Below the pieces are notes generated by a model that was not told where the DNA came from, ran no database searches, and saw only the letters and a list, made by a program, of their open reading frames with translations. A DNA stretch of 64,000 bases, from positions 1,116,001 to 1,180,000 of the forward strand of contig NZ_WHOH01000003.1 of assembly GCF_009741735.1 (NCBI RefSeq), written 5' to 3'. Positions 4,744 to 59,245 of this stretch are shown piece after piece. The position numbers and the translations under genes were made by a program. Numbering within the stretch: the first letter of the stretch is position 1; each line of letters opens with the position of its first letter. The DNA comes from Lentibacillus sp. JNUCC-1. GTDB taxonomy: Bacteria > Bacillota > Bacilli > Bacillales > Amphibacillaceae.

Positions 4744-4786
4744 TACTCAAGTTTCCCTGAGGTATGTATAAAGGAGCAATAAGACC

Positions 4787-6099
4787 ATGACAGAAACAAC
4801 ATTTAACGCCTTTAATTTAAACAGAAATATGCTTGAAGTGATCGGAAAGTTACAATTTACGGCACCAACACCTATTCAGCAACACGTCATTCCAGCAGTT
4901 TTAAATCATCAGAGCGTGATCGGGCAGTCACATACCGGTTCTGGAAAGACACACGCGTTTTTACTGCCTTTATTCAATATGATTGACGAGGACAAGGAAG
5001 GGGTCCAATGTGTCATTACAGCCCTACACGTGAGCTGGCAAGGCAGCTTGATGAACAAATAAAACGGATCATACAGCTGGCAGAGAAAGAGGGGATCTGG
5101 ACGTCCCGGCTTCTTGTCGGGGGGACTGATAAGCAAAAAATGAGAGGGAAATTGAAACAAGTGCCTCAAATCGTTGTTGGTACCCCCGGCCGGATTTTTG
5201 ACATGGTAAATGAACAAGCACTCTCTATATACACAGCTAAAGCCTTTGTAGTGGATGAAGCTGATTTAATGGCTGAACTTGGTCTCATTAACGATATCGA
5301 TCAATTATTGAATCGAGCTCATCCCGATATTCAGCTACTCGCATTTTCAGCCACAATTCCTGTTGTGCTGGAACAGTTCTTTAAAAAGTATCTGGAAAAC
5401 CCTGTACATGTAAAATTGGATGATGAGATGGTTCCGGTCAACATGGAACATCGTTTGATTCCAAAAAAGCACCGGGATGAAGCGGATATCATTTTGGAAA
5501 TATCGCGAGCCATACATCCTTATTTAGCCATCGTATTCACAAATGGTAAAGACGAAGCAGACAAACTCGCGGCCAAACTGGTTGAACGGGGTTTGAACAC
5601 TGGGATTATTCATGGCGGTCTTGCGCCGCGAGAGCGTAAACGCCGCCTGAAAGAAATCCAAAACCTTCAATATCAATACGTGGTAGCAACGGATCTCGCT
5701 GCAAGAGGAATTGATATCAAAGGGATCAGCCATATCATTAATGCCCAAATGCCTAAAGAAGAAAGTTTTTATCTGCACAGAGTGGGGAGAACGGCTCGTG
5801 CTGGCCTGGAAGGAACAGCTGTAAGTCTATATGAGGAATCGGATATCACCTTGGTAGATAAATTGGAAGCAAAAGGGATTGAATTTACTTTTTCAGATGT
5901 GAAAAATGGTCAGTGGACTACTGCCAATCCATACAATATGCGTTCTAAACGACAAAAATCCACACAAGACATAGACAGAGAAGCATGGAAACGCGTTAAA
6001 AAGAGTAAAACGGTAAAGCCGGGCTATAAAAAGAAAGCAAAACAACAGCAAGAGCGCATAAAGAAAAATCTCAGCAAAAAAAATCAATACAAAAAGTAA
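4787..6099 (+). CDS. cshB: DEAD-box RNA helicase CshB, frameshifted
   Basis: An ATP-dependent RNA helicase linked to cold adaptation, RNA turnover and ribosome assembly. The Q motif (FTAPTPIQQHVIP), Walker A (SHTGSGKT) and, after the shift, motif Ia (PTRELARQ), motif II (DEAD inside VVDEADLM), motif III (SAT) and motif VI (HRVGRTARAG) are visible in order. The Lys/Arg-rich tail (about the last 60 residues) is typical of CshB and binds RNA. Motif I and motif Ia are in different frames: the run ccc at 5022-5024 lacks one C, after which APTRELARQLDEQ would read through. Restored length is about 438 residues. The ATG has an aaggag RBS. In B. subtilis ispH lies between yqfO and cshB; here only 43 bp separate them. 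Confidence 0.92.
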
Positions 6100-6123
6100 G
6101 TCCGATTGGGAGGAGAGAACACC

Positions 6124-7014
6124 ATGAAACTGGGATCACACGTATCAATGAGCGGTAAAAAAATGCTGCTCGGTTCAAGTGAAGAAGCAGCATCTTACGG
6201 TGCGAATGTGTTTATGATCTATACAGGCGCACCGCAAAATACACGCAGAAAGCCAATTGAAGAATTGAATATAGATAACGGACAAGCTCATATGAAAGAA
6301 CATGGCATTGAGGATATCATTGTCCATGCGCCATACATTATTAACATTGCCAATACAACAAAACCGGCTACATTTGAGCTTGGTGTTGATTTCCTTCGTA
6401 ATGAAGTTGATCGTACAGAAGCAATTGGGGCCAGACAAATCGTCCTCCATCCGGGAGCACATGTGGGCGCTGGCGTTGATAAAGGGATAGCCAAAATTGT
6501 TGAAGGTCTGAATGAAGTCCTCGTTAAAGACAGTCCAGTTCAGATTGCACTTGAAACCATGGCAGGTAAGGGCACTGAAATTGGACGTACGTTCGAGGAA
6601 TTGGCCCAGATTATAGAGGGCGTTACTCACAACGAATTGCTGTCAATTTGTCTTGATACCTGCCATATTCATGATGCCGGTTACGCTGTTCAGGATGATT
6701 TTGACAGTGTTTTAAATGACTTTGATAAAATTATCGGAATTGACCGGTTAAAAGTTGTGCATGTTAACGATAGTAAAAATGAACAAGGTGCACATAAGGA
6801 TCGTCATGAAAATATTGGTTTTGGCCATATTGGATTTGATGCGCTTTATAAGGTCGTCACACATCCTCAGCTTGAAGATCTTCCTAAGATTTTGGAAACG
6901 CCATATGTGGGTCCTGATAAAAAGAACAAAAAACCGCCTTACCAGTTTGAAATTGACATGCTTCGGGAAGGGTCTTTTGTTCCGGATTTGAAAGACAAGA
7001 TCATGGCACAATAA
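6124..7014 (+). CDS. nfo: Endonuclease IV (AP endonuclease)
   Basis: A 296-residue apurinic/apyrimidinic endonuclease with a TIM-barrel fold and three zinc ions, acting in base excision repair and during spore outgrowth. It begins [15 protein letters not shown], the standard family N-terminus, which fixes the ATG at 6124 behind gggaggaga. Zinc ligand motifs include [41 protein letters not shown] and [22 protein letters not shown]. It follows cshB by 24 bp and is likely in the same transcript, as in B. subtilis cshB-yqfS. Confidence 0.97.
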
Positions 7015-7024
7015 AGTTAATCAT

Positions 7025-7306
7025 TTAAAACATATGGTCAATGCCATATGTTTTTATGATCTCTCTGAATAAACGTTCTGCTTTTTGCGCTGTTTGCCGA
7101 TCTGTGATTGAAGCCAAATCGTTAAAAAGAATGGTGCGGCCTTGTTCACTAAATGGATCGACCTGGTTCTGTTTAATATAGGCAATCATGTCCTGCGCTT
7201 CCTGTTGCGTTAAATTGAAACCATATTGTCGGGCATACCCCATTAGTTCTTTTTCGGATAATGATTTGAGTTTACCCATCATGATGGTCTTTAAAATATC
7301 ATTCAT
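7025..7306 (-). CDS. yqfT: DUF2624 protein YqfT
   Basis: A 93-residue protein of unknown function, matching the Bacillus YqfT/DUF2624 family by size, by its position next to nfo, and by motifs such as LTQQEAQDMIAYIK and AERLFREI. It is predicted soluble and mostly helical, without a signal peptide or membrane segment. A strong RBS (ggaggg) lies 7 bases before the start on the minus strand. It is convergent with nfo, and its last codons double as one arm of the nfo terminator. No function is proposed. Confidence 0.8.
   Translation of the reverse strand: MNDILKTIMMGKLKSLSEKELMGYARQYGFNLTQQEAQDMIAYIKQNQVDPFSEQGRTILFNDLASITDRQTAQKAERLFREIIKTYGIDHMF
7027..7058 (+). terminator. nfo terminator, overlapping the yqfT 3' end
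   Basis: An 11-bp perfect stem (aaaacatatgg at 7027-7037, ccatatgtttt at 7044-7054) with a 6-base loop and T-rich flank on both strands. It could serve both convergent genes, and it lies over the last codons of yqfT. Confidence 0.75.
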
Positions 7307-7455
7307 CTTTTACCCTCCATTGGTCTTTTTAAGTGTTGTTAAAATATACTATGCGAGATGGTGCATGTGTTGACCATGTGTTGGAAGATATAAGCATCAT
7401 GAATTCTCCTGACCTCCATAAACTAGGCATGTAAAAGAGGAAGGAGGGTGAGCAA

Positions 7456-7872
7456 ATGGATGATAAAGATAAAGATCAATATTCAAATGAAACAGAAAAA
7501 GCACCGGAATATGGAAAAAATAAAAACCATTTAACGCCAGAGATGGCGCCACCACCTGGCCAAGCGGTACAAGTGGATAGCTTGAGGCAAGAAGAAATGG
7601 CTCAGGAATTAACCGCAGATGATATTTCCATGGACCAAGATACTGGGACAACCTCAGAATTGCCTGAATCACATGCAAACAGCATAATAGGCTGGGGAGC
7701 ATTGGCACTGTCTGTTTTATCGTTTTTCATGATGCCAATTATTCTGGGCGGTGGCGGGGTCATTCTCGGATTTGTAGCAAGAGCACGTCATGCTAATACA
7801 CTGGGTACTACAGCAATTGTTGCAGGAGCTGCATCGATTTTAATCACCCTGTTTATTGCGCCGTTTATTTAA
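7456..7872 (+). CDS. yqfX: Small membrane protein YqfX-like
   Basis: A 138-residue protein with a hydrophilic, Glu/Pro-rich N-terminal half (about residues 1-75) and two strongly hydrophobic segments in the C-terminal half: SIIGWGALALSVLSFFMMP with the following Gly-rich IILGGGGVILGF, and TTAIVAGAASILITLFIAPFI. This matches the Bacillus YqfX family (conserved membrane protein, function unknown). The RBS aaggagggtg is strong. In B. subtilis ispG lies immediately downstream; here only a terminator and then the divergently encoded LysM protein follow, so ispG is absent. Confidence 0.7.
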   Translation: MDDKDKDQYSNETEKAPEYGKNKNHLTPEMAPPPGQAVQVDSLRQEEMAQELTADDISMDQDTGTTSELPESHANSIIGWGALALSVLSFFMMPIILGGGGVILGFVARARHANTLGTTAIVAGAASILITLFIAPFI

Positions 7873-7874
7873 AT

Positions 7875-7924
7875 AAAGAGGCTGTTTCGTCAGAGTCACA
7901 ACTCTTATGAAACAGCCTTTTCTT
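7875..7924. terminator. Bidirectional terminator
   Basis: A 10-bp perfect stem (aggctgtttc 7879-7888 with gaaacagcct 7909-7918) flanked by A-rich sequence on the left and ttttctt on the right. It lies between two convergent genes. Confidence 0.8.
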
Positions 7925-7929
7925 ATGAA

Positions 7930-8253
7930 TTAATGTATAATGGGATCATGATACAAAGGAAATAAATAATAGTGTCCAGGTTGAAGTTTGTACGGGTCGG
8001 CTTGAGGGTTTAATCGTTTGAAATCAGACAAAATACGATTGACATCGAAGGATTGATGTAGACCATGGTTAACGTGTTCTACAACTGTGAGAACTGTATC
8101 ACCTGCCTCTACCTGAACCTCAATCCTGTTTGAATTGGACTGCTCTTGAGTGCTATTAGATGTAGGTTGGTTGTCAACGGACAGATCATGATACATACTG
8201 GAAATAAATAACCAAATACAAAGATATAGTAGCATTCGTTTAATAAATTCCAA
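7930..8253 (-). CDS. yqfZ: LysM-domain protein YqfZ-like
   Basis: A short membrane-associated protein of about 107 residues with an N-terminal hydrophobic segment (RMLLYLCIWLFISSMY), a Ser/Asn/Gln-rich linker, and a C-terminal LysM-like module (VEAGDTVLTVVEHV ... LQPGHYYLFPL). LysM domains bind peptidoglycan or spore cortex. The start is uncertain: GTG at 8262 is only one base from the RBS aaaagg, whereas the in-frame TTG at 8253 has a 10-base spacing and is preferred. It is the positional counterpart of B. subtilis yqfZ, the gene following ispG; here ispG itself is missing. Confidence 0.72.
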   Translation of the reverse strand: MEFIKRMLLYLCIWLFISSMYHDLSVDNQPTSNSTQEQSNSNRIEVQVEAGDTVLTVVEHVNHGLHQSFDVNRILSDFKRLNPQADPYKLQPGHYYLFPLYHDPIIH

Positions 8254-8321
8254 CTTGATCACGCCTTTTTTGAAACCATATTGAACACTGAACCGTACAT
8301 ATCAATAAGGAGAGGATTCAT

Positions 8322-8975
8322 ATGGATATGGCATCGGCTGAATGGATTGCATTTGTAATGACAGGGCTTGGGACCTTGTTTCTCCTTGGAGAAATAATGG
8401 TGAATACGAGGGGGATTTTTGCAATCTTGGGCATTGGTTTTATAACTGTATTCTTCACAGTGGCCCTTGATACAAGCTCCTTTATATTAATGCTTATTAT
8501 TTATTTTGCGGGAATAGTACTGATTATTATCGATGGGAAACTCTTAAACGATGGGACGCTTGGCACACTCGGCGCTGCCGGAATGTTAACTTCTGTGGCG
8601 ATTGCTGCCCCTACATTCGGCTCTGGATTATTTGCAGTGGCAGGCGTTCTAGTGGGCGGCATCAGTTCTATCTTGTTTCTCAAGGTATTTAAGCGCAGGG
8701 AAATGTGGACAAAAATAACACTTCGGGATCGTCTTACAAAAGAAGCAGGGTATAACACAATGACAGAAGAGTACAGTGCATTACTCGATCACACAGGCAT
8801 CACTTTAAATGATCTGCGTCCTGTAGGTACCGTCAAAATTGCTGGAAAAGATTATAGTGCCGTGTCTAATGGACAATGGATACCTGCTGACACGCAAATT
8901 AAAGTGGTTCAGGTGGATGGGACCGGGCTAAAAGTGGAACCGATTCAACAACATCAAAACACCTCTGACGATTAA
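8322..8975 (+). CDS. NfeD family membrane protein
   Basis: A 217-residue protein with three to four hydrophobic segments in the first 125 residues (WIAFVMTGLGTLFLLGEI, IFAILGIGFITVFFTVAL, FILMLIIYFAGIVLIII and the Gly/Ala-rich stretch ending ISSILFLKVF). A soluble C-terminal OB-fold-like domain follows (VGTVKIAGKDYSAVSNGQWIPADTQIKVVQVDGTGLKVE), typical of NfeD proteins that partner flotillin/stomatin-type proteins in membrane domains. No flotillin gene is adjacent in the window. The RBS aaggagagg is strong, and the gene is a single transcription unit closed by its own terminator. Confidence 0.82.
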   Translation: MDMASAEWIAFVMTGLGTLFLLGEIMVNTRGIFAILGIGFITVFFTVALDTSSFILMLIIYFAGIVLIIIDGKLLNDGTLGTLGAAGMLTSVAIAAPTFGSGLFAVAGVLVGGISSILFLKVFKRREMWTKITLRDRLTKEAGYNTMTEEYSALLDHTGITLNDLRPVGTVKIAGKDYSAVSNGQWIPADTQIKVVQVDGTGLKVEPIQQHQNTSDD

Positions 8976-8990
8976 GTCAGAGGTGTTTTA
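8956..8990 (+). terminator. NfeD-family gene terminator overlapping the stop codon
   Basis: A 14-bp perfect stem (8956-8969 with 8976-8989) and a 6-base loop. The TAA stop codon (8973-8975) lies inside the loop. Confidence 0.9.
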
Positions 8991-9098
8991 CATAGAATAT
9001 ATTAGGTGTGTTGCAGAGTATTGTAAAGAACATGTTAAAATTATGGATAAGCTCTTTACAAATTGTACAAATTCATACATGATTAAACACGGTACGAC

Positions 9099-10763
9099 AT
9101 GTTTTTTACAATTTATCGAAGGGATGGGTCACCTTTGGGCATTGATTTACAATCGCTATTATTTGAATTTATTGGTGGTTTGGGCATCTTTCTTTTAGGT
9201 ATTAAATATATGGGAGAGGGCCTTCAGAAATCAGCTGGCGACCGTCTACGGGATATATTGGACAGATTTACAAGCAATCCCATTCTTGGCGTCTTGGCTG
9301 GTATTGTTGTTACCGTCTTGATTCAGAGCAGTTCAGGTACAACTGTATTAACAGTAGGCTTGGTTAACGCTGGATTTATGTCATTAAGACAAGCAATCGG
9401 CGTAATCATGGGTGCCAACGTCGGAACAACGGTAACTGCATTTATTATTGGTATTGATATCGGTGCCTATGCTTTGCCAATACTGGCTGCCGGGGCAATG
9501 ATGCTATTCTTTTTCAAGCATAAAAAAATTAATGCCTTGGGTCAGACTGTATTTGGGTTCGGATCTCTATTTTATGGACTTGAATTAATGAGCAGCGGCA
9601 TGTCTCCATTAAGGAGTATGGATTTCTTCCAAGAGCTGACGCTGCGTATGAGTGATCAACCGATTCTTGGGGTCTTGATCGGTACTGTCTTTACGCTCAT
9701 CGTACAGAGTTCATCAGCCACAATTGGTATTCTCCAGGGGTTATTCTCAGAGGGTGCTATTGAACTTAAAGCAGCCATTCCTGTTTTGTTCGGGGACAAC
9801 CTTGGAACAACGATTACAGCAATATTGGCAGCTATAGGAGCGTCTGTAGCGGCTAAACGTGCAGCATTTACACATGTTGTTTTTAACCTGGTCGGTTCTA
9901 TTGTGTTTTTATTGCTACTCGGGTTTTTTACGCAATTTATTGAATTTCTGCAAGCACAGTTCAACCTTAACCCGGAAATGACAATCGCCTTTGCTCATGG
10001 CAGTTTTAACATTGCTAACACAGTGATTCAATTTCCGTTTATTGCGGGACTTGCCTGGCTTGCCACCAAAGTGATTGCAGGTAAAGATGTTATTATCGAA
10101 TATAAGCCGAAACATCTTGATCCTATTTTTATCCAGCAGTCACCTTCAGTTGCCCTCGGACAAGCTAAGGCAGAAATCATTCGAATGGGTGGGTATGCCT
10201 CAAAGGGACTCGAAGAAACACAAAGTTATTTGGCCACACATCAGCAGAAACACTCAGAAATTGCTATGCAGGTAGAAGGGGCACTTAACAACTTGGACAA
10301 AGAAATTACGAATTATCTTGTTGAGATCTCCAGCCGTTCTATGTCAGAACACGAAAGTGCTCAGCATACGAATTTAATGGATACAGTCAGAGATATTGAA
10401 CGAATGGGAGATCACTTTGAAAACATTATTGAATTGATTGATTATCAAATTTCCAACAAGGTCATTATAACGGATCATGCGATAGAGGACTTGAATAACA
10501 TGTTTGATTTAACCATTCTAACCGTTAGACAGGCCATTAATGCTTTGGACACCATGGACCGTGAAGAAGCCCTGGAAGTGATTCAAAAAGAGGATCAGAT
10601 AGACAGAATGGAACGGAAATACCGCAAACGGCATATTATACGCGTGAATGAGGGGCAATGCAGCGCCTCAGCAGGCATTGTTTTTGTGGATATTCTTAGT
10701 AATTTGGAACGTATAGGAGACCATGCAGTCAACATTGCGGAAGAAGTACTTGGAGATTCTTAA
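9099..10763 (+). CDS. Na/Pi cotransporter family protein with PhoU-like domain
   Basis: A 554-residue sodium-dependent phosphate transporter. The membrane half (about residues 15-330) contains the two inverted QSSS signature repeats, IQSSSGTTV and VQSSSATIG, each followed by a Gly-rich GANVGTT/GDNLGTT motif. The C-terminal 200 residues are helical with two PhoU-like repeats ending IERMGDHFENI and LERIGDHAVNIAEE. The start is not certain: ATG 9099 has no good RBS, while the in-frame TTG at 9135 follows gaaggga by about 10 bases and begins just before the first membrane helix. It is isolated from phosphate-regulon genes, so a Pho-box link cannot be judged. Confidence 0.9.
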   Translation: MFFTIYRRDGSPLGIDLQSLLFEFIGGLGIFLLGIKYMGEGLQKSAGDRLRDILDRFTSNPILGVLAGIVVTVLIQSSSGTTVLTVGLVNAGFMSLRQAIGVIMGANVGTTVTAFIIGIDIGAYALPILAAGAMMLFFFKHKKINALGQTVFGFGSLFYGLELMSSGMSPLRSMDFFQELTLRMSDQPILGVLIGTVFTLIVQSSSATIGILQGLFSEGAIELKAAIPVLFGDNLGTTITAILAAIGASVAAKRAAFTHVVFNLVGSIVFLLLLGFFTQFIEFLQAQFNLNPEMTIAFAHGSFNIANTVIQFPFIAGLAWLATKVIAGKDVIIEYKPKHLDPIFIQQSPSVALGQAKAEIIRMGGYASKGLEETQSYLATHQQKHSEIAMQVEGALNNLDKEITNYLVEISSRSMSEHESAQHTNLMDTVRDIERMGDHFENIIELIDYQISNKVIITDHAIEDLNNMFDLTILTVRQAINALDTMDREEALEVIQKEDQIDRMERKYRKRHIIRVNEGQCSASAGIVFVDILSNLERIGDHAVNIAEEVLGDS

Positions 10764-10794
10764 AAAAGAGGCTGATTTTTATCAGCCTTTTTTT
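10764..10794 (+). terminator. Na/Pi transporter gene terminator
   Basis: A stem ggctgat / atcagcc (10770-10776, 10781-10787) extended by flanking A and T runs, followed by seven T residues. Confidence 0.88.
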
Positions 10795-10890
10795 GCGAAA
10801 TTTATTGCTTAATGGATATGAACATGCTATAGTATGTAGTGTTGTGTTTTGGCTTACATCTGTGCGAGCTGAAAAATAAAATGAAGTATA

Positions 10891-10919
10891 TTGACATATT
10901 GTGAAGAACATGGTAAATT
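10891..10919 (+). promoter_or_regulatory. Sigma-A promoter of the tRNA cluster
   Basis: TTGACA (10891-10896), a 17-base spacer and TAAATT (10914-10919), ending 39 bases before the first tRNA. The perfect -35 element fits a strong stable-RNA promoter. Confidence 0.75.
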
Positions 10920-10958
10920 ATATTTCGTGCTCTTAATTGACATATATTTTAATTCTAT

Positions 10959-11033
10959 TCCACAGTAGCTCAGTGGTAGAGCAATCGGCTGTTAACCGAT
11001 CGGTCGCAGGTTCGAATCCTGCCTGTGGAGCCA
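10959..11033 (+). tRNA. tRNA-Asn (GUU)
   Basis: A cloverleaf with a 7-bp acceptor stem tccacag/ctgtgga, anticodon GTT in the loop ctGTTaa, T-loop ttcgaat and encoded CCA. The D-arm is agctcagtggtagagc. Confidence 0.97.
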
Positions 11034-11036
11034 TGT

Positions 11037-11113
11037 GGCGGCGTAGCTCAGCTGGCGAGAGCGTACGGTTCATACCCGTGAGGTCGTGGGTTCGATCCCC
11101 TCCGCCGCTACCA
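11037..11113 (+). tRNA. tRNA-Met (CAU), elongator type
   Basis: A 77-nt cloverleaf with acceptor ggcggcg/cgccgct, anticodon CAT in the loop ttCATac, and encoded CCA. It closely resembles the Bacillus elongator tRNA-Met. The T-stem (gtggg with ccctc) contains one T-T mismatch at its second pair, where a G-T pair is usual. It lies 3 bases after tRNA-Asn. Confidence 0.93.
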
Positions 11114-11128
11114 TTTTATTACGCTTAT

Positions 11129-11205
11129 GGCGGCCGTGGCGAAGTGGTTAACGCACCGGATTGTGGCTCCGGCACACGTGGGTTCGATCCCCACCGGTCG
11201 CCCCA
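11129..11205 (+). tRNA. tRNA-His (GUG)
   Basis: Anticodon GTG in the loop ttGTGgc and acceptor gcggccg/cggtcgc. The extra G at -1 (11129) faces C73, the tRNA-His identity feature. The 3' CCA is encoded. Confidence 0.96.
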
Positions 11206-11222
11206 TAATATATTTTTATTCA

Positions 11223-11299
11223 GGACCCTTAGCTCAGTTGGTTAGAGCTATCGGCTCATAACCGATCGGTCGCAGGTTCGAGTCCTGCAGGGTCCACCA
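11223..11299 (+). tRNA. tRNA with CAU anticodon, probably Ile2 (lysidine-modified)
   Basis: A 77-nt cloverleaf with acceptor ggaccct/agggtcc, loop ctCATaa and encoded CCA. The body matches the Bacillus CAU tRNA that reads AUA after lysidine modification by TilS, and it differs from both initiator and elongator tRNA-Met (it lacks the initiator's three G-C anticodon-stem pairs). The assignment to Ile rests on this resemblance. Confidence 0.85.
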
Positions 11300-11308
11300 T
11301 AACTAAGC

Positions 11309-11400
11309 GGAGGTATACCCAAGTTCGGCTGAAGGGATCGGTCTTGAAAACCGACAGGCGGGTCAAACCGCGCGGGGTTCGAATCCCTCTACCTCCTCCA
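11309..11400 (+). tRNA. tRNA-Ser (UGA)
   Basis: A 92-nt class II tRNA with a long variable arm (gcgg/ccgc stem around 11357-11371), anticodon TGA in the loop ctTGAaa, acceptor ggaggta/tacctcc and encoded CCA. Position 73 is T rather than the G expected in tRNA-Ser. Confidence 0.94.
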
Positions 11401-11433
11401 TACATATTGTTTTACAGTGCAACAACTGAATAA

Positions 11434-11509
11434 GGCTCGGTAGCTCAGTCGGTAGAGCAAAGGACTGAAAATCCTTGTGTCGGCGGTTCGATTCCGTCCC
11501 GAGCCACCA
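11434..11509 (+). tRNA. tRNA-Phe (GAA)
   Basis: A 76-nt cloverleaf with acceptor ggctcgg/ccgagcc, anticodon GAA in the loop ctGAAaa and encoded CCA. It is the last tRNA before the terminator. Confidence 0.97.
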
Positions 11510-11515
11510 TCTTTC

Positions 11516-11546
11516 AAACAAGCAGATCAATGGCTTGTTTTTTGTT
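11516..11546 (+). terminator. tRNA cluster terminator
   Basis: An 8-bp stem aaacaagc (11516-11523) with gcttgttt (11533-11540), continuing into a T-rich tract. Confidence 0.8.
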
Positions 11547-11551
11547 CTTGT

Positions 11552-11577
11552 GTTTAACCTTTATTGAGAAGGGGTAT
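11552..11577 (+). promoter_or_regulatory. Sigma-B-type general stress promoter upstream of sodA
   Basis: GTTTAA (11552-11557), a 14-base spacer and GGGTAT (11572-11577) match the Bacillus sigma-B consensus exactly in both hexamers and in spacing. It lies 128 bases before the sodA ATG. Confidence 0.72.
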
Positions 11578-11705
11578 TATGTATAAGTGGATAGACACTT
11601 CAGGGGTAAGAGCACTTTGTTTGCATATCCGAAAGGCCTTTGATAACCTCTAATCAAAAGGGTGAATGTTCTATCCTTTTAAAAATATGGAGGAGGAAGA
11701 TATAT

Positions 11706-12317: not shown

Positions 12318-12332
12318 TTGTTTGAGATCAAC

Positions 12333-12358
12333 AGCGCGAGGTATTCCTCGCGCTTTTT
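12333..12358 (+). terminator. sodA terminator
   Basis: A GC-rich 9-bp perfect stem agcgcgagg (12333-12341) with cctcgcgct (12346-12354), a 4-base loop and a T-tract. Confidence 0.93.
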
Positions 12359-12416
12359 GTATATCTGCTTGCTTATTGCCCACACTATTTAACGTGTGAA
12401 AAGGAGCATGCAGCCT

Positions 12417-13688: not shown

Positions 13689-13693
13689 GTGAT

Positions 13694-32980: not shown

Positions 32981-33111
32981 GACGTACATCACTCACTTTT
33001 AGCTGGATTACTTTCAAACCTATGTTATAATAAGCTTGAAATAGATATTCTTTGTGCATGAACAGCATACATAGTGTAACCAACTGAATAATTTTTATAA
33101 GCGAATGAATG

Positions 33112-33314
33112 CAAGAGGAGAGTTTACGCCCGTATGCCGGATATAAAAAAATGGCTCGGTCGTAACGCCGAAGGAGCAAACATATTGTGAATCTCTCAGG
33201 CAAAAAGACTCTTGCAGGACGCACCTCTGGAGAGTGTTTACTGCTGTAAACCACCCACGAAGCAAGCCGCGGTCAAACGCGCGAAACTTTCTGGTTGAAG
33301 GACAGAGATTTCAT
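33112..33314 (+). ncRNA. Tandem glycine riboswitch
   Basis: Two consecutive glycine aptamers. Aptamer 1 (about 33112-33216) runs from gaggagagt through gccgaaggagcaa to aatctctcaggcaaaaagac. Aptamer 2 (about 33217-33314) runs from ggacgcacctctggagag through cacgaagcaagccgcgg to the ggttgaaggacagag end. The repeated cores GCCGAAGGAGCAA-like and tctcaggcaaa / tctggttgaa are diagnostic. It lies directly before gcvT and should activate glycine cleavage when glycine is high. Confidence 0.95.
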
Positions 33315-50968: not shown

Positions 50969-50972
50969 ACAC

Positions 50973-51006: not shown

Positions 51007-51167
51007 ATGGGGAAAAATATGAGGTTCGCATTGAAAGCGCAATATTGATATAATATGATGCAGTTGGTTAATGCACAACCGTTTTTCATAGATTGTTGTT
51101 ATGATGGTAGACATAATAAATAAGGTTTTATAACTACTAATAGGCACTTTATATCTTTAAACGAGCA

Positions 51168-51620: not shown

Positions 51621-51806
51621 TTCCAAGTTTTAGTTGATTCTGAGTTGGTGTCTATTTTTGTTTGTGTTATGACAATGATCGTTGGAAAATGGTATTTGTA
51701 AAAGCTCTTGCCGGCTCAAGGTTGATGTTTGGTTTGTTTTTATCGTAATATAGGATTAGACATTAACATCTGTTATTAATTTTTGACTATGAAAGGATGC
51801 CAAATT

Positions 51807-52316
51807 ATGCTTAAAGTCCAGGAAATCCGTGAATTGATCAAGCTGATTGATGAATCATCCATTGATGAATTTTCTTATGAAACGAATGGAACAACTATAT
51901 CCATGAAAAAATCCTCAGGTGAACAAATTGTTAAAGCTGAGCCTGTTCCTGCAGTTGAAAAACGAGAAACAGCTGTTCAGCAAACTGAAGCACCTCAAAC
52001 GGCCCCTGTTGAAAAACCAGCTGAGGTTTCACAAGAAGAACCAGTTGCAAATACACCTTCAAATGCCGTTGACTATGATCATGAAATTGTCTCACCGATG
52101 GTCGGAACATTTTATTCATCTCCTTCACCAGACAGTGACGTTTATGTCAAAGTCGGGAGCCAAGTTGAGAAGAGCTCCATTGTATGTATTGTAGAAGCCA
52201 TGAAATTATTTAATGAAATTGAGGCTGAAGCAAACGGTGAAATTGTAGAAATCCTCGTAGAAAATGGCGAGTTAGTCGAATATGGCCAACCGCTTTTCAG
52301 GGTTAAAACAAAGTAG
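51807..52316 (+). CDS. accB: Acetyl-CoA carboxylase biotin carboxyl carrier protein
   Basis: A 169-residue carrier of the fatty-acid-synthesis carboxylase. The N-terminal helix region is [22 protein letters not shown], followed by a Pro/Ala/Glu/Gln linker. The biotinyl domain starts at [12 protein letters not shown] and carries the biotin lysine in [12 protein letters not shown] 51807 follows gaaagga. accC begins 11 bases after its stop. Confidence 0.97.
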
Positions 52317-52326
52317 GGGAACTCTC

Positions 52327-53685
52327 GTGATTAAAAAAGTACTTATTGCAAATAGAGGTGAAATTGCGGTACGGGTTATTCGTGCCTGCAAAGAAATGGA
52401 TATTCAAACTGTTGCTGTATATTCAGAGGCTGACCGTGAATCGCTGCATGTGCAATTGGCAGACGAAGCTTATTGTATTGGGCCAGCCGCAAGTAAAGAC
52501 AGCTATCTTAATTTCACCAACATCATGAGCCTTGCCACATTGACAGATGTTGATGCGATCCACCCCGGTTATGGGTTTTTAGCAGAGAATGTTGATTTTG
52601 CGGAAATCTGCCGGGCTTGTAACATCACATTTATCGGCCCGTCCCCGGAAGCAATTCAGCAGATGGGCATTAAGGATGTTGCCCGCGAAACGATGAAAAA
52701 TGCCGGTGTTCCTATTGTTCCGGGCTCAGATGGTGTTGTTGCAGATGTGGAAGAAGCGAAGACAATTGCTGCTGAAATCGGATATCCAGTTATCATTAAA
52801 GCAACAGCAGGCGGCGGCGGAAAAGGCATTCGAGTCGCTAGAGATGAAAAAGAATTGATAAACGGCGTTCAAATGACACAAAATGAAGCCGAAACCGCAT
52901 TTGGGAACCCGGGTGTTTATCTTGAAAAATTTATAGAGGACTTCCGCCATGTTGAAATCCAGGTCATGGCTGATACTTACGGGAATGTTGTCCATTTGGG
53001 TGAGCGTGATTGTTCGATTCAGCGCCGGCTGCAAAAATTGATTGAAGAAACCCCATCCCCGGCCATTACACCTGAAATCAGGGAGAAAATGGGCCAGGCT
53101 GCCGTAAAAGCCGCTAAAGCAGTGGATTACGTCGGCGCCGGTACGATCGAATTTATTTTTGAACGACCGACACAATCATTTTACTTCATGGAAATGAATA
53201 CAAGAATTCAAGTTGAACATCCCGTAACCGAAATGGTTACCGGTATTGATCTGATCAAGGAACAAATCAATGTGGCTGATGAGAAGGAACTTTCTTTTAA
53301 ACAGGCAGACATTAAGTTCGATGGTTGGTCCATAGAATGCCGTATCAATGCCGAGAATCCATTTAAAAATTTCATGCCATCTGCCGGGCATATAGACATG
53401 TATTTGCCTGCAGGCGGTTTGGGTGTGCGAGTTGATTCTGCTGCATACCCCGGTTATCGTATCCCGCCCTATTATGATTCCATGGTGGCAAAATTAATTG
53501 TGCATGGCGCTACCCGTGAAGAAGCGGTGTCCCGCATGAAGCGCGCTTTGGATGAGTTTTTGGTTGAGGGAATCCACACGACCATACCTTTCCACAGGCT
53601 CATTATGGACCATGAGGTATTCGTCAGTGGAGATTTTAACACGAATTTTCTTGAATTATATCCTATTGAAGAAGAGAATGAATGA
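52327..53685 (+). CDS. accC: Acetyl-CoA carboxylase biotin carboxylase subunit
   Basis: A 452-residue ATP-grasp enzyme that carboxylates biotin on AccB. The N-terminus IKKVLIANRGEIAVRVIRAC fixes a GTG start at 52327 (RBS agggga). The glycine-rich loop is ATAGGGGKGIRV. The catalytic region is FMEMNTRIQVEHPVTEMVTG, and the C-terminal ECRINAEN motif is present. Together with the carboxyltransferase AccAD (elsewhere) it makes malonyl-CoA. Confidence 0.98.
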   Translation: MIKKVLIANRGEIAVRVIRACKEMDIQTVAVYSEADRESLHVQLADEAYCIGPAASKDSYLNFTNIMSLATLTDVDAIHPGYGFLAENVDFAEICRACNITFIGPSPEAIQQMGIKDVARETMKNAGVPIVPGSDGVVADVEEAKTIAAEIGYPVIIKATAGGGGKGIRVARDEKELINGVQMTQNEAETAFGNPGVYLEKFIEDFRHVEIQVMADTYGNVVHLGERDCSIQRRLQKLIEETPSPAITPEIREKMGQAAVKAAKAVDYVGAGTIEFIFERPTQSFYFMEMNTRIQVEHPVTEMVTGIDLIKEQINVADEKELSFKQADIKFDGWSIECRINAENPFKNFMPSAGHIDMYLPAGGLGVRVDSAAYPGYRIPPYYDSMVAKLIVHGATREEAVSRMKRALDEFLVEGIHTTIPFHRLIMDHEVFVSGDFNTNFLELYPIEEENE

Positions 53686-53720
53686 TCCAAGCATTTATCT
53701 TAGCAGAGGAGAGTGGAAAT

Positions 53721-54122
53721 ATGAGTGACCAGCCATTATTGAATGTTAGTGACAATACGGATTTGGGCAAGGTCGAAATTGCTCCCGAAGTGATTGAAAT
53801 TATAGCTGGGATTGCCGCCTCGGAAGTTGAAGGTTTGTCTTCCATGCGCGGGAATTTTGCGACCGGAGTTGTGGAGCGTTTTGGACGTAAATCACACAGT
53901 AAAGGTGTTAAAGTAGAACTTGCTGAAAATGGAATTGTCATTGACTTGTATGTTGTCATGAATTTTGGTGTTTCTATTCCGACCGTCGCACAAAGCATTC
54001 AAAACAATATCAGACAGTCACTTAAAACAATGACAGCTCTCGAAATAGAAGAAATCAACGTCCACGTGGTAGGCGTCCAAATGGAAAGCCAAAGCGATCA
54101 TGAGGCAGAAGACACCGAGTAA
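53721..54122 (+). CDS. yqhY: Asp23/Gls24 family protein YqhY
   Basis: A 133-residue Asp23/Gls24-type protein: KVEIAPEVIEIIAGIAASEVEGL, GVVERFGRKSHSKGVKVEL and YVVMNFGVSIPTVAQSIQNNI are typical (each in part). In B. subtilis yqhY is co-transcribed with accBC and its loss disturbs acetyl-CoA carboxylase control. ATG 53721 follows gaggagagtgg; the upstream in-frame ATG at 53682 overlaps accC. A terminator follows. Confidence 0.92.
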   Translation: MSDQPLLNVSDNTDLGKVEIAPEVIEIIAGIAASEVEGLSSMRGNFATGVVERFGRKSHSKGVKVELAENGIVIDLYVVMNFGVSIPTVAQSIQNNIRQSLKTMTALEIEEINVHVVGVQMESQSDHEAEDTE

Positions 54123-54133
54123 ACATAAACGAT

Positions 54134-54164
54134 GGCCAGGGGATATCCTTTGGCCTTGTTTATT
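54134..54164 (+). terminator. yqhY terminator
   Basis: A 9-bp stem ggccagggg (54134-54142) with cctttggcc (54147-54155), including two G-T pairs, with loop atat and a ttgttta tract. Confidence 0.72.
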
Positions 54165-54263
54165 TGATCATTATGGGCTTATGGCCTGTCATTGTTGATT
54201 CTAGCAATACATAGGGGATCGTGTTATGATTTGAAAAGATATGATAAAAGGAGTTAATCAACA

Positions 54264-54644
54264 ATGAATCGTCATACTGCAAGAGAAACAGCATTTCAGG
54301 TTATTTTTCAAATGGATATGAATGATATTGACCCTATAACAGCCATTCAGCAGTTTTTGGAAACAACGGATATAGATACTTTTTTGCAAACGTTGGTGGA
54401 AGGTGTTGTTTCCCATAAGGTGAATATTGATGAGACAATCTCCAGTCACCTTGAAAAGTGGACCATCGATCGTATTGCCCGTGTTGAAAAAACCATTTTG
54501 CGGATCGCTGTATATGAGATTCTGTTTATCGAGGATATTCCTGAAAGTGTTTCGGTCAATGAGGCAGTTGAACTGGCCAAAACATTCGGGGATGAAGATT
54601 CAAGCAAATTTGTCAATGGTGTATTATCTAAAATACTAGCTTAA
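54264..54644 (+). CDS. nusB: Transcription antitermination factor NusB
   Basis: A 126-residue all-helical RNA-binding factor for rRNA antitermination with S10. Conserved: RHTARETAFQVIFQMDM at the N-terminus, RIARVEKTILRIAVYEILF and VSVNEAVELAKTFGDEDSSKFVNGVL (in parts). The RBS aaaggag precedes the ATG. It begins the nusB-folD-xseA-xseB-ispA run. Confidence 0.96.
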   Translation: MNRHTARETAFQVIFQMDMNDIDPITAIQQFLETTDIDTFLQTLVEGVVSHKVNIDETISSHLEKWTIDRIARVEKTILRIAVYEILFIEDIPESVSVNEAVELAKTFGDEDSSKFVNGVLSKILA

Positions 54645-54657
54645 AGGGGAATGAGCA

Positions 54658-55506
54658 ATGGTAGCAGAGATCATCAGTGGGAAGGAATTGGCACAAAAGC
54701 TGCGAGAAGATATGAAGGTGGAGGTTGACCGGCTGCGAGAAGCGCATATTGTTCCACATTTGACGGTGGTCCTGGTGGGAGATGACCCGGCTTCCCGTTC
54801 TTATGTCCGGGGCAAGGAAAAAGCCTCCAGAGAAACCGGGATTTCATCTGATGTGATTGAACTCCCAACTTCCACTACCGAAGAGGATTTACTAAAGACA
54901 ATCCACCAGTTGAATGAGGATGAGAATGTACATGGGATCCTTGTACAATTGCCGTTGCCTGACCATATCCGGGAGCAGCTTGTCATCGAAACAATCTCGC
55001 CGGACAAAGATGTTGACGGGTTTCATCCAATCAGTATTGGCCGGATGATGACTGGTCAGGATACGTTTTTGCCATGCACACCCCATGGTATCATCCAAAT
55101 GCTTAAATCCAAGAATATTTCGATGACGGGCAAGCATGCTGTGATCATCGGAAGAAGCAATATTGTAGGTAAGCCTGTAGGACAATTATTGTTAAATGAA
55201 CATGCAACGGTAACGTATTGTCATTCGAAAACAAAGGATTTGAAAGCTCTCACCACTCAAGCTGATATTTTAATTGCAGCTGTAGGAAAGCCGAACGTTA
55301 TAAAGGCCGACCATATTAAAGAAGGGGCTGCTGTGATTGACGTAGGTGTCAACAGACTTGAGAACGGTAAACTGACCGGTGATGTAGATTTTGAAGCCGT
55401 TAAAGAAAAAGCGTCTTATATCACCCCAGTTCCAGGCGGTGTAGGACCGATGACAATTACAATGCTTCTTAAAAACACCATTAAAGCTGCTGAAGGACTG
55501 GATTAA
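54658..55506 (+). CDS. folD: Bifunctional methylenetetrahydrofolate dehydrogenase/cyclohydrolase
   Basis: A 282-residue NADP-dependent enzyme of one-carbon metabolism. The catalytic Tyr-Lys pair is in [12 protein letters not shown], and VQLPLPDHI and [12 protein letters not shown] follow. The Rossmann loop is [17 protein letters not shown], and [15 protein letters not shown] closes the domain. It starts 13 bases after nusB behind aaaggggaa. The stop codon is one base from the xseA GTG. Confidence 0.97.
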
Positions 55507-55507
55507 A

Positions 55508-56852
55508 GTGAATGACAACTATTTAACAGTTACAGCACTCACACGGTATATCAAACGTAAAATGGATTCTGACCGCCATTTACAAAATGTTTGGTTAAAA
55601 GGAGAGTTATCCAATTTCAAGCATCACAGTCGGGTCATATGTATTTTACAATTAAGGACGACCGGACTAAAATAAATTGTGTCATGTTTGCAGGACAAAA
55701 TCGTAAACTCTTATTTCGGCCCGAAAGTGGTATGAACGTGCTCATACAGGGGGCTGTCAGTGTGTTTGAACCTTATGGCCAATATCAACTGTATGTACAC
55801 CAGATGGAGCCGGATGGCCTTGGCGCACTCCATCTTCAATTTGAACAATTGAAAGAACGATTAAGCAACCAAGGGTATTTTCGGGAAGATCACAAGAAAC
55901 AGCTGCCAGCTTTTCCAAATCATATCGGCGTGATCACGTCTCCAACAGGAGCGGCAATCAGGGACATATTAACAACGCTAAAACGCAGATACCCTGTTGC
56001 GCATGTTACGGTTTATCCAGTTCTGGTGCAGGGGAAAGAAGCGGCAGATTCCATTGCTAAAGGGATCAGACAGGCTAACACAGCTATGCTTTGCGATGTC
56101 CTTATTGTGGGAAGAGGTGGGGGCTCCATTGAAGAATTATGGAGTTTTAATGAGGCAATTGTAGCAGAAGCAATTTATGAATCCCACATTCCGATTATCT
56201 CTGCTGTAGGACATGAAACAGATTTTACGATCAGTGACTTTACAGCAGACGTTCGTGCCGCAACCCCAACAGGTGCAGCTGAAATTGCTGTTCCCTCGAC
56301 CATGGAGTTGAAATCAAATCTGGCAGAGTTCAGACGAACCATGACAAGATTGATTCAGTTGAAAATAGAGGGAGAAATGCGTCACCTTCAGAGAATTAAG
56401 GCGTCACATGCACTTAATTACCCTGAGCAGTTGACTGTTCAAAAAGAGCAAGAGCTTGATAAAGTAACGGAACGATTTGATCGAGCTTTAATGAATGTAT
56501 TACAGCGGAAGCGAGAACAGAGTGAAAATGCGAGAAAACGATTGTTTATCCAACATCCCAAACGTCATATTGATCAGGCTGTAAAAGAATTGAATCAATT
56601 AACCCATCGACAGGATGCAGCCATGAATCGCTTCATTCAGCAAAAAACAATTGCCTTAGATAATATGCTTGAAAAACTGACTCTGCTCAACCCGCTTGAA
56701 ATTATGAAACGCGGCTATGCAATACCTTATGGGGAAGATGGCCATATTGTTCGCTCTGTAAGAGATATAAAAAAGATACAGCTTTATCTGTCAAGTTAGC
56801 TGATGGAAAAGCGCACTGCACAGTGCAAACATTGGAGGAGGACCCGTCATGA
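55508..56852 (+). CDS. xseA: Exodeoxyribonuclease VII large subunit, two frameshifts
   Basis: The catalytic subunit of a single-strand exonuclease. The OB-fold begins in the first frame (GTG 55508, [18 protein letters not shown] ... [13 protein letters not shown]). It continues in another frame ([10 protein letters not shown]), because the G-run at 55631-55634 lacks one G. The catalytic part carries [39 protein letters not shown] and AATPTGAAE. Near the end a second loss, in the A-run 56769-56774, makes the raw frame stop at 56799; correction gives a C-terminus ending at 56852, with ATGA overlap to xseB. Corrected length is about 448 residues, the family norm. Confidence 0.9.
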
Positions 56853-57082
56853 CGACCGAGAAAGAACTGTCTTTTGAAGAAGCGATGAAAAAACTTGAAG
56901 AGATCGTTCAAAAGCTTGAAGAAGGGGATGTTCCCTTGGAGAAAGCCATCACCTATTATCAGGAGGGCATGGCATTATCCAAGCTTTGCAGCGACAAACT
57001 TTCGAATGTACAAAGTAAAGTAACTCAAATAACGAATCAGTATGGTGAATCTGAACCTTTCGATATTCAGGAGGGTGAATAA
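56849..57082 (+). CDS. xseB: Exodeoxyribonuclease VII small subunit
   Basis: A 77-residue helical partner of Xse[36 protein letters not shown] (in parts) is the family signature. The ATG follows ggaggagg and overlaps the corrected xseA stop by four bases. ispA begins 4 bases after its stop. Confidence 0.96.
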
Positions 57083-57085
57083 ATT

Positions 57086-57970
57086 ATGACTGCCTCTCTT
57101 GAGACGTTTATGGCCCGTTACAAGAAAACAATTGAAAGCGTAATGAACGGCTATCTGAATGAACTTGACGTTCCGAAAGAGCTGAAGGATTCCATGCGGT
57201 ATTCCATAGAGGCAGGCGGCAAGCGAATCAGACCTTTGCTCTTAATGGCGAGTTATCTCGCATATAAACGCGATGTGGAAATAACATATTCCAGCGCTGC
57301 TGCTCTTGAATTTATTCATACATACTCGCTTATTCACGATGACCTCCCTGCTATGGATGATGACAATTTGCGAAGAGGGAAGCCTACTAATCATATTGTG
57401 TTCAATGAGGCGACGGCCATCTTGGCAGGCGACGCCCTTTTGACATCCAGCTTTGAGCTGATTTCCAAAGATGAATCGCTTTCGAATTCCCAAAAGCAAT
57501 ATCTTATCGGTCTTTTATCCGAGACGAGCGGCCCAAAAGGCATGGTTGCGGGACAAATACTGGATATGCAAGCTGAAGAACAACAAGTTTCTTTGGTCGA
57601 ACTTGAACAGATTCATACACTTAAAACGGGTGAGTTGTTACGGTTTGCAGTAACCGCTGGGGCATATCTTGCAGGTGCAACCAATGAGCAACTCGAAGAC
57701 CTAAAGCTATTTGCGCATTACATTGGATTGATCTTCCAAGTGCAGGATGACATTTTAGATGTAGTTGGTGACGAAACTAAGCTTGGAAAACCAATTCAAA
57801 GTGATACAGCAAACCTTAAAAGCACTTATCCACTTCTGCTCGGAATTGAAGGCGCCATAGAACAAAAGAAAGCATATGTCAAACAGGCTAAAGAAGCATT
57901 ACATCGGGCAGGAGTTGCAGACTCGTACCTTGCTGAACTAACAGATTATTTCAGTGATAGGGATCATTAA
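57086..57970 (+). CDS. ispA: Farnesyl diphosphate synthase (polyprenyl synthetase)
   Basis: A 294-residue prenyltransferase that condenses IPP with DMAPP and GPP to farnesyl diphosphate. The first Asp-rich motif is LIHDDLPAMDDDNLRRGKPTNH and the second is FQVQDDILDVVGD. The substrate-binding GGKRIRP is near residue 46. It is coupled to xseB, behind aggagggtg. In B. subtilis dxs follows; here OLE RNA and oapA follow and dxs is missing. Confidence 0.97.
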   Translation: MTASLETFMARYKKTIESVMNGYLNELDVPKELKDSMRYSIEAGGKRIRPLLLMASYLAYKRDVEITYSSAAALEFIHTYSLIHDDLPAMDDDNLRRGKPTNHIVFNEATAILAGDALLTSSFELISKDESLSNSQKQYLIGLLSETSGPKGMVAGQILDMQAEEQQVSLVELEQIHTLKTGELLRFAVTAGAYLAGATNEQLEDLKLFAHYIGLIFQVQDDILDVVGDETKLGKPIQSDTANLKSTYPLLLGIEGAIEQKKAYVKQAKEALHRAGVADSYLAELTDYFSDRDH

Positions 57971-58009
57971 TGTCTGGAAAAGCAGCAGGAAAAATGTTAT
58001 AATATAATT

Positions 58010-58625
58010 ATAAAGGAATGGTACAGTATTCTAGTCAGTCCTCCGCTCCTGAAGGCGGGCCTAAAAATCCGCCAAAGGGCACATCGATGAAGTTCCTTGT
58101 GCTGGCTTGAGGCGCCCAGCCTTGGGTCAGTGCTGGGAGTTAAGGTTTTCGGGCGATCCACAAAGGCATGTGGGCGTAGACCCGATTACCGCGGAGGCCC
58201 ATCTCTGTAGCGCAGACTAAGCCTAGGATGTGCTATGGAATGGGGTATGAACCTGTAGAATAAGGTAAGGGAAACCTTGTTTGCAGCGTAGCCTGCCTTG
58301 AGTGGTAACGAGGGGATTGGAGTTCATACGAATTGCCCGATTGGCCGTCGGTCAATTCGTTTACTCTCCATGAAATCGTTACTGCAAAAGAGGCTAGGGA
58401 GCGGCCAAAGGCTGTTGAGGAAATCTCCTAGACTGTTTCTAAGACATTTAAAAGGGATTATAGTGTGGACTAAGTGGTAATCCAGTCAAGCTTTCGGCGA
58501 CGGAGCTTAGATGAATTTAAAGGGGAACCGCCTTCATGGCAACATGAGGTATTCATCTGGGAAAACCTACTGGACCTAAGCCACAGTTTTAACCTTTTAA
58601 ATGACCATTCCTTGTTCTTACATAA
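58010..58625 (+). ncRNA. ole: OLE RNA (ornate, large, extremophilic RNA)
   Basis: About 615 nt of non-coding, highly structured sequence between ispA and oapA, the exact place where OLE RNA is known in extremophilic Firmicutes, and the length fits the family (about 600 nt). The 3' part shows clean nested helices: gcttag (about 58506) with ctaagc (about 58577), agatgaat with attcatct, and a catg-gcaa-catg hairpin with a GNRA tetraloop. The 5' part holds several short G/C-rich helices. Known OLE RNA is bound at the membrane by OapA. Ends are approximate. Confidence 0.85.
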
Positions 58626-58629
58626 TCCA

Positions 58630-59232
58630 ATGATTGAGGTATATGATGAAATCTGTGTTAAAAAATCGATCAAATTCAGTTTAACCATAGCCGTTATCAC
58701 GTTTGTGTTAGCGGCTGTTTTTTCAATTGTGTCATCCACGATTTTGAATGATGTTATTTGGATGGTTGGATTAATTATTGTATTTGTGATTGTCTTTATT
58801 GGTGTTGTTTTCGACATGCTTGGTATTGCAGCTACTGCAGCCGCTGAGTCGCCTTTTCATGCGATGGCTGCAGAAAAGGTTAATGGTGCAAAGGAATCCG
58901 TGATCATCGTCAGAAACGCGGATAAGTTTGCCAGCTTTTGTAATGATGTAATCGGGGATATATCCGGAATTGTCAGTGGAACCGCCTCATCCATCGTTGT
59001 TCTGCAGATTGCAAATTTATTAAATGGCTCACAAGGTTCAATTTACATTATACTTAATGTGTTTTTAACAAGTCTTGTAGCTGCAATGACAGTAGGAGGA
59101 AAAGCGGTTGGTAAAACAATGGCGATTCAGTCTTCAACAAAAATTATTTTTACAGCAGGTAAAATAATAGCGTTTATAGAACGTCATACCCCATTCGACT
59201 GCTCCCAAGACAATCTGATTAAAATAAACTAA
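58630..59232 (+). CDS. oapA: OLE RNA-associated membrane protein OapA
   Basis: A 200-residue membrane protein with about four hydrophobic segments (IKFSLTIAVITFVLAAVFSIV, VIWMVGLIIVFVIVFIGVVF, GIVSGTASSIVVLQIANLL and IYIILNVFLTSLVAAMTVG), similar to DUF21-type CNNM proteins, ending in a short hydrophilic tail. It directly follows OLE RNA, as OapA does, and is the proposed membrane receptor for it. The start is uncertain: ATG 58630 or TTG 58612 lack a good RBS, and the frame is open back to GTG 58474, but that part lies over the structured 3' end of the RNA. Confidence 0.82.
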   Translation: MIEVYDEICVKKSIKFSLTIAVITFVLAAVFSIVSSTILNDVIWMVGLIIVFVIVFIGVVFDMLGIAATAAAESPFHAMAAEKVNGAKESVIIVRNADKFASFCNDVIGDISGIVSGTASSIVVLQIANLLNGSQGSIYIILNVFLTSLVAAMTVGGKAVGKTMAIQSSTKIIFTAGKIIAFIERHTPFDCSQDNLIKIN

Positions 59233-59245
59233 AGGATTCGATTAC

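What the first reader, a model, noticed from the sequence alone, without database searches (positions are those of the whole stretch)
4744..59245. Three MEP-pathway genes (ispH, ispG, dxs) are missing from all three expected loci
Synteny with B. subtilis is otherwise close. There, ispH lies between yqfO and cshB, ispG between yqfX and yqfZ, and dxs between ispA and yqxC. Here these gaps are 43 bp, 57 bp (a terminator) and OLE RNA plus oapA. ispA, which uses the pathway's products, is retained. Independent loss at three places looks like loss of the whole methylerythritol phosphate pathway, so IPP would have to come from the mevalonate route or relocated genes. It is also notable that OLE RNA/oapA stays when its usual neighbour dxs is gone.
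Basis: partly seen in the sequence, partly recalled or inferred. Interest (0 to 1): 0.75.

Follow-up and report, generated by a model that had tools for sequence, protein, structure and literature searches.

The report
Mevalonate swap; ispE and OLE stay
This salt-loving Bacillus relative appears to have replaced the usual bacterial route to isoprenoids with the mevalonate route, yet it keeps one enzyme gene of the lost route and a large mysterious RNA that often sits beside another of its genes.

Summary
ispH, ispG and dxs are absent from all three sites (gaps of 43, 57 and 13 bp). Searches of the window's genome find no Dxr, IspF, IspG or IspH, no true IspD, and only short partial matches to the Dxs N-domain. 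A complete mevalonate set is present: mvaA-mvk-mvaD-pmvk in one block and mvaS elsewhere. A same-genus genome matches Lentibacillus saliphilus. In 120 genomes of the family, IspH and HMG-CoA reductase are almost exclusive: 81 mevalonate-only, 38 MEP-only, 1 with both, none with neither.

(1) The loss is not total: an intact ispE remains, and 63 of 81 mevalonate-only genomes keep one. In 39 of these examined, the catalytic residues are invariant, and dN/dS is 0.03-0.23 in the 8 measurable pairs, so selection continues, though weaker than in MEP genomes. (2) OLE RNA is equally common with either pathway (59/81 against 29/38), and OLE and OapA evolve no faster where dxs is gone. OLE therefore probably does not need Dxs.

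Mevalonate-for-MEP replacement is known. The OLE decoupling and the selected orphan ispE are the useful parts.

The parts
3629..4743 (+). yqfO (DUF34/NIF3), left neighbour of the empty ispH site; read in two frames
   Evidence: PF01784, TIGR00486
4744..4786 (.). empty ispH site, 43 bp
   Evidence: sequence; no IspH in the genome
4787..6099 (+). cshB-position DEAD-box helicase, right neighbour of the ispH site; read in two frames
   Evidence: CshA/DbpA-like matches in both ORFs
7456..7872 (+). ORF at the yqfX position
   Evidence: named by place only; no Pfam or NCBIfam match
7873..7929 (.). empty ispG site, 57 bp with a terminator-like inverted repeat
   Evidence: sequence; no IspG in the genome
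7930..8262 (-). ORF at the yqfZ position
   Evidence: named by place only; weak DUF6672 match below its cut-off
57086..57970 (+). ispA, farnesyl diphosphate synthase
   Evidence: NF045485 396 bits, cut-off 275
58002..58624 (+). OLE RNA
   Evidence: RF01071 542 bits, model 1-616 of 616
58630..59232 (+). OapA-like membrane protein
   Evidence: start by comparison; relatives downstream of OLE in 9 of 9 named loci tested
59233..59245 (.). empty dxs site, 13 bp
   Evidence: sequence; dxs at this place in 14 of 14 IspH-bearing OLE loci
59246..60015 (+). tlyA, right neighbour of the dxs site; read in two frames
   Evidence: TIGR00478, three-frame translation

Best explanation
This bacterium makes IPP by the classical mevalonate route; the MEP pathway has been replaced. 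Shown: six of seven MEP genes are not found and all five mevalonate genes are present. Shown: in the family the two pathways exclude each other in 119 of 120 genomes, and single genomes look like steps of the swap: HMG-CoA reductase and synthase beside an IspH-bearing MEP set (G030, Aquibacillus sediminis); mevalonate genes plus dxs, ispD, ispE and ispF but no ispH (G021, Paraliobacillus quinghaiensis); ispF cut down to a fragment (G061, and G078 = Paraliobacillus sp. PM-2); clean loss. Inferred: mevalonate genes were gained first, MEP genes then decayed in place, and this happened more than once. OLE RNA and OapA kept their place between ispA and tlyA and their rate of evolution, so whatever they do probably does not need Dxs or MEP flux (inferred, about 0.85). 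The leftover ispE encodes a kinase with its catalytic residues under purifying selection; it most likely has a job other than the MEP step (inferred, about 0.5), which cannot be named from sequence. The confidence below is for the pathway replacement.
For: MEP absences, with controls; mevalonate set; 81/38/1/0 split of 120 genomes; strong HMG-CoA synthase in 79 of the 81 and in G030; intermediate states; OLE presence and rate independent of pathway; dxs absent in 24 of 27 mevalonate-only OLE loci and in 33 of 80 named oapA loci; orphan IspE retained, catalytic residues invariant, dN/dS well below 1; species and HMG-CoA reductase trees, two arrangements of mevalonate genes.
Against: The genome is 96.6% complete and the window carries frame breaks in yqfO, cshB, xseA and tlyA. 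Two mevalonate-only genomes (G012, G025) gave no HMG-CoA synthase match, so their pathway may be incomplete or missed. IspE evolves faster relative to neighbouring proteins in mevalonate genomes (ratio 1.06 against 0.69) with higher dN/dS (median 0.074 against 0.035): partly relaxed. ispE has no above-cut-off match in 18 of 81 mevalonate-only genomes, so it is dispensable in some. Dxr, IspG and Dxs were searched genome-wide only in the window's own genome; Idi and ThiG not at all. The fixed IspE differences between the groups may only reflect descent.
Confidence: 0.92

Rival explanations
1. The MEP genes are present but were missed: relocated, or in the unassembled few percent of the genome.
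For: Completeness 96.6% in 3 contigs; the window shows frame breaks; three partial Dxs-domain hits exceed the loose Pfam cut-off.
Against: Six separate family searches fail while IspH, IspD and IspF are found at full score in the 39 IspH-bearing relatives. A complete mevalonate set is present. The same-genus genome G043 also lacks IspH and IspF, has no true IspD and no dxs at OLE.
Confidence: 0.02
2. The orphan ispE is a relic on its way out, kept only because too little time has passed.
For: Faster relative evolution (1.06 against 0.69) and higher dN/dS than in MEP genomes; no above-cut-off match in 18 of 81 mevalonate-only genomes; one orphan (G020) has lost both cytosine-site residues at 25 and 26.
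Against: Present in 25 of 30 mevalonate-only genera, although true IspD and IspF are gone from 61 of those 63 genomes. Lys10, Asp141 and Ser108 invariant in the 39 orphans aligned. dN/dS 0.03-0.23 in the 8 pairs with dS below 1.5.
Confidence: 0.3
3. ispE is kept for the sake of its neighbour purR (promoter or translational coupling), not for its protein.
For: A purR-like ORF follows ispE in the three ispE-bearing loci whose ORFs I listed (name recalled).
Against: In 11 of 13 ispE-less loci fetched a purR-like ORF stands intact without ispE (G008 runs off its contig; none seen in G064). Coupling would not hold catalytic residues fixed.
Confidence: 0.08
4. Mevalonate is ancestral in the family and the MEP-bearing genera regained MEP.
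For: Two mevalonate lineages sit among MEP genomes in the unrooted tree, which needs at least two changes of either kind.
Against: dxs is at its usual place in 14 of 14 IspH-bearing OLE loci, whereas the mevalonate genes come in two arrangements with HMG-CoA reductases only 46-54% identical. Half-decayed MEP sets in G021, G061 and G078 point to MEP loss.
Confidence: 0.05

Closest known systems
Staphylococcus mevalonate clade (S. aureus and others; PMC5040788, section 10 read)
   Same: Mevalonate pathway in place of MEP in one clade of a genus whose other members keep MEP; IspE (and an annotated IspD) retained without the pathway.
   Different: Here ispE is kept without true IspD or IspF in 61 of the 63 mevalonate-only genomes that have it, the swap shows at genus level across a family, and OLE RNA is involved.
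Virgibacillus halodenitrificans ASH15 mevalonate pathway (PMC10556750, passages read)
   Same: A related halophile and, by gene number, the same order reductase, mevalonate kinase, decarboxylase, phosphomevalonate kinase with mvaS apart.
   Different: The main text has no hit for ispE, dxs or MEP.
Listeria partial MEP pathway ending at MEcDP (PMC13001223, sections 17 and 18 read, passages)
   Same: G021 keeps dxs, ispD, ispE and ispF without ispH beside mevalonate genes, much as L. innocua is described (its IspG and Dxr were not searched here).
   Different: The window's genome has lost everything but ispE, so it should not make MEcDP.
OLE RNA with oapA and dxs (PMC10898510, passages read)
   Same: Same RNA and OapA position; these authors name dxs as a frequent neighbour and hint at a link to isoprenoid synthesis.
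   Different: dxs is gone here and in 33 of 80 named oapA loci; OLE was confirmed by Rfam in the 6 of those 33 that were tested.

Membership tests
Classical bacterial mevalonate pathway | HMG-CoA synthase, HMG-CoA reductase, mevalonate kinase, phosphomevalonate kinase, diphosphomevalonate decarboxylase | tested here: met
   TIGR01835 562 bits, TIGR00532 431, TIGR00549 290, TIGR01220 349, TIGR01240 352, each above its cut-off
Classical bacterial mevalonate pathway | IPP isomerase (Idi) | not tested
MEP pathway | Dxs, Dxr, IspD, IspE, IspF, IspG, IspH all present | tested here: not met
   Only IspE found at full length
IspE (CDP-ME kinase) | Whole-length match to the IspE equivalog | tested here: met
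   TIGR00154 304.8 bits, cut-off 138.7
IspE (CDP-ME kinase) | Catalytic Lys10 and Asp141, cytosine-site His26, stacking Phe185 (E. coli numbers; roles from passages of PMC2655357 and PMC11541488) | tested here: met
   All four in the window's genome; 39/39, 39/39, 38/39 and 39/39 in the orphans aligned
IspE (CDP-ME kinase) | Phosphorylates CDP-ME in the cell | not testable with these tools
   Needs biochemistry; no true IspD was found to make its substrate
OLE RNA class | Full-length match to RF01071 upstream of an OapA-like membrane protein | tested here: met
   542 bits, model 1-616 of 616; OapA-like ORF follows. Not compared with the Halalkalibacterium OapA itself
OLE RNA class | dxs as neighbour (frequent, not defining) | tested here: not met
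   13 bp between oapA and tlyA

The most novel reading that the evidence does not exclude
IspE in mevalonate-using Bacillota is not a leftover but a kinase with a second, MEP-independent substrate. Its cytosine site is largely kept, so a CDP-linked alcohol or another cytidine compound is the first guess.
Probability: 0.4. Interest if true: 0.75.

Novelty: new member of a known kind. Interest (0 to 1): 0.5.

Why it matters
OLE is a large structured bacterial RNA whose biochemical function is still unknown, and its frequent neighbour dxs has been used to hint at a link to isoprenoid synthesis. A family in which the pathway was swapped while OLE stayed is a natural experiment, and it argues against a necessary link to Dxs. 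The selected orphan ispE suggests that an enzyme pursued as a MEP-specific drug target may have another role in mevalonate users, which also include Staphylococcus.

Tried and rejected
Structure prediction of the orphan IspE without an alignment gave mean pLDDT 33.6 and was not used. The 39-bit IspD hit was set aside as GlmU by position and partial cover. IspD-family hits of 120-146 bits in some relatives were not counted as IspD (a ribitol-phosphate cytidylyltransferase is likely; not tested). HMG-CoA synthase matches of about 20-29 bits in frames of 203-350 residues were not counted as mvaS; G003, which has IspH but no HMG-CoA reductase, also has a 38-bit match in a 420-residue frame, not followed up. 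Of the 18 genomes counted as lacking ispE, 7 have GHMP-type matches of 19-33 bits below the cut-off, read as other kinases. In G061 the broken dxs is not taken as decay because recN and oapA are broken in the same locus. A search for dxs remains in positions 4901-5500 of the 33 dxs-less named loci found none. No unusual fold in window 8975-9098.

Literature: eight answered searches for IspE or mevalonate in such bacteria, or for OLE with dxs or isoprenoids, and one for IspE residues. Their listings showed no title about OLE decoupled from dxs or about a function of orphan IspE; only top hits are listed and only open-licence papers are held, so this is no proof of absence.
Full report
What is in the window. 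The window is G000:C3:1116001-1180000 of a 3.69-Mb genome in 3 contigs. Gene order follows the Bacillus subtilis trmK-yqfO ... recN region (B. subtilis order recalled). ispH is missing between yqfO and cshB (43 bp), ispG between the ORF at 7456-7872 and the opposite-strand ORF at 7930-8262 (57 bp), and dxs between oapA and tlyA (13 bp). The ORFs at the yqfX and yqfZ positions are named by place only. OLE RNA is full length at 542 bits and ispA is intact.

Whole genome. No Dxr, IspG, IspH or IspF was found. Dxs shows only as four partial N-domain matches (26 to 19 bits over at most 65 of 274 positions; three of them above the loose Pfam cut-off of 21.2). IspD shows only as a 39-bit partial match read as GlmU. 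The mevalonate set is mvaA-mvk-mvaD-pmvk in one block on contig 1, followed by ORFs that I read as rocF, sigW, rsiW and cdaA (names recalled, not tested), with mvaS on contig 3. One MEP gene is left: ispE, 284 aa, followed by a purR-like ORF (name recalled). Idi was not searched.

Relatives. In 120 genomes drawn from the family (46 genera, the window's own included), HMG-CoA reductase is in 82 and IspH in 39; one genome has both (G030), none neither. So 81 are mevalonate-only in 30 genera, 38 MEP-only in 15, and no genus in the sample mixes the two. A strong HMG-CoA synthase match (48 bits or more) is in G030 and in 79 of the 81; G012 and G025 have no match.

Stages of the swap. G030 has HMG-CoA reductase and synthase beside an IspH-bearing MEP set with dxs, ispD, ispE and ispF; its other mevalonate genes were not looked for. 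G021 has mevalonate genes plus dxs, ispD, ispE and ispF but no IspH; its Dxr and IspG were not searched. G061 keeps ispD and ispE but only a trace of ispF, and G078 a fragment of ispF. G025 keeps a dxs that is 49% identical to the reference, against 69-86% in the 13 IspH-bearing loci other than the reference itself. In a tree of five proteins from 41 genomes all 14 IspH-bearing genomes fall in one group with support 1.0; inside it two mevalonate lineages, G017+G021+G061 and G007+G008, are separated by MEP genomes (unrooted). The mevalonate genes seen in 22 loci come in two arrangements, and their HMG-CoA reductases are 46-54% identical between and 55-85% within the two types. Together this suggests more than one replacement.

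OLE and OapA. OLE is in 59 of 81 mevalonate-only and 29 of 38 MEP-only genomes, Fisher p = 0.82 (related genomes are not independent, and the search used stricter filters). dxs lies between oapA and tlyA in 14 of 14 IspH-bearing loci and in 3 of 27 mevalonate-only loci. Among the best 80 of 244 named loci with an OapA relative, 33 lack dxs there, in Lentibacillus, Virgibacillus, Oceanobacillus, Ornithinibacillus, Cerasibacillus, Halolactibacillus, Streptohalobacillus and Paraliobacillus among others; several of these are the same genomes as G handles. Rfam confirmed OLE in 9 of 9 named loci tested, 6 of them without dxs. Relative to five neighbouring proteins, OLE distance has mean ratio 0.398 in 24 dxs-less genomes and 0.435 in 14 IspH-bearing ones; OapA 0.697 and 0.712. 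Loss of dxs has not relaxed OLE or OapA. The OLE literature stresses the dxs neighbour (PMC10898510, passages); these data say the link is not required.

Orphan IspE. An IspE above the family cut-off is in 39 of 39 IspH-bearing genomes and 63 of 81 mevalonate-only ones, in 25 of 30 genera; the 18 without it are all sampled genomes of g8, g9, g10, g18 and g27 and one of two in g6. True IspD and IspF are gone from 61 of the 63. I took 41 of the 63, set G021 and G061 aside, and aligned 39 with 29 of the 39 from IspH-bearing genomes and E. coli. Lys10, Asp141, Ser108 and Phe185 are invariant in the orphans, His26 is in 38 of 39, Asn12 in 36 of 39, Tyr or Phe at 25 in 38 of 39; positions 156 and 181 vary. 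The MEP group has Tyr at 185, which E. coli has as Phe. Nine sites (eight named in passages of PMC2655357, PMC11541488 or PMC12902931, or matched to them; position 181 recalled) are together more conserved than random columns (608 of 20,000 draws as high), modest evidence that also reflects the catalytic core. dN/dS in mevalonate-only genomes: median 0.074 over the 8 pairs with dS below 1.5 (range 0.03-0.23), against 0.035 over 35 pairs in MEP genomes. Relative protein distance is 1.06 against 0.69 (22 genomes, G021 and G061 included, and 9). Constraint is weaker than in MEP genomes but far from absent. In 11 of 13 ispE-less loci a purR-like ORF stands intact, so ispE is not needed for purR.

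What is known. MEP and mevalonate are known to alternate between and within genera (PMC13001223, sections 17 and 18), Staphylococcus mevalonate users retain IspD and IspE annotations (PMC5040788, section 10), and Virgibacillus halodenitrificans has the mevalonate genes in this order (PMC10556750, passages). The swap itself is thus a new member of a known kind. The searches listed under Tried and rejected showed no report of OLE without dxs or of a role for orphan IspE.

Noticed in passing
window 3629-4743, 4787-6099, 55508-56799, 59246-60015: yqfO, cshB, xseA and tlyA each read in two frames; four breaks in housekeeping genes in one window suggest assembly indels rather than pseudogenes.
   Followed up: partly
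L108 (G025) 4741-6534: A dxs kept in a mevalonate-only genome is only 49% identical to the reference Dxs; perhaps retained for thiazole or under relaxed selection.
   Followed up: no
L178 3555-6392 minus strand, and similarly sized ORFs in L181, L184, L185: In genus g27 a large membrane-protein ORF (UPF0182 by Pfam, tested on L178 only) lies in the stretch where ispE is in other genera.
   Followed up: partly
L195, L197, L210: Second HMG-CoA reductase genes, 40-49% identical to the main types, with no mevalonate kinase match beside them.
   Followed up: partly
L143 (G020) ispE: One orphan IspE has Glu and Tyr at the cytosine-site positions 25 and 26, the only one of 39 to lose both.
   Followed up: no
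L269: A record titled Roseburia sp. 1XD42-34 carries an oapA locus like that of Virgibacillus; possibly a mislabelled genome.
   Followed up: no
window 33105-33307: Two glycine riboswitch aptamers in tandem; ordinary.
   Followed up: no
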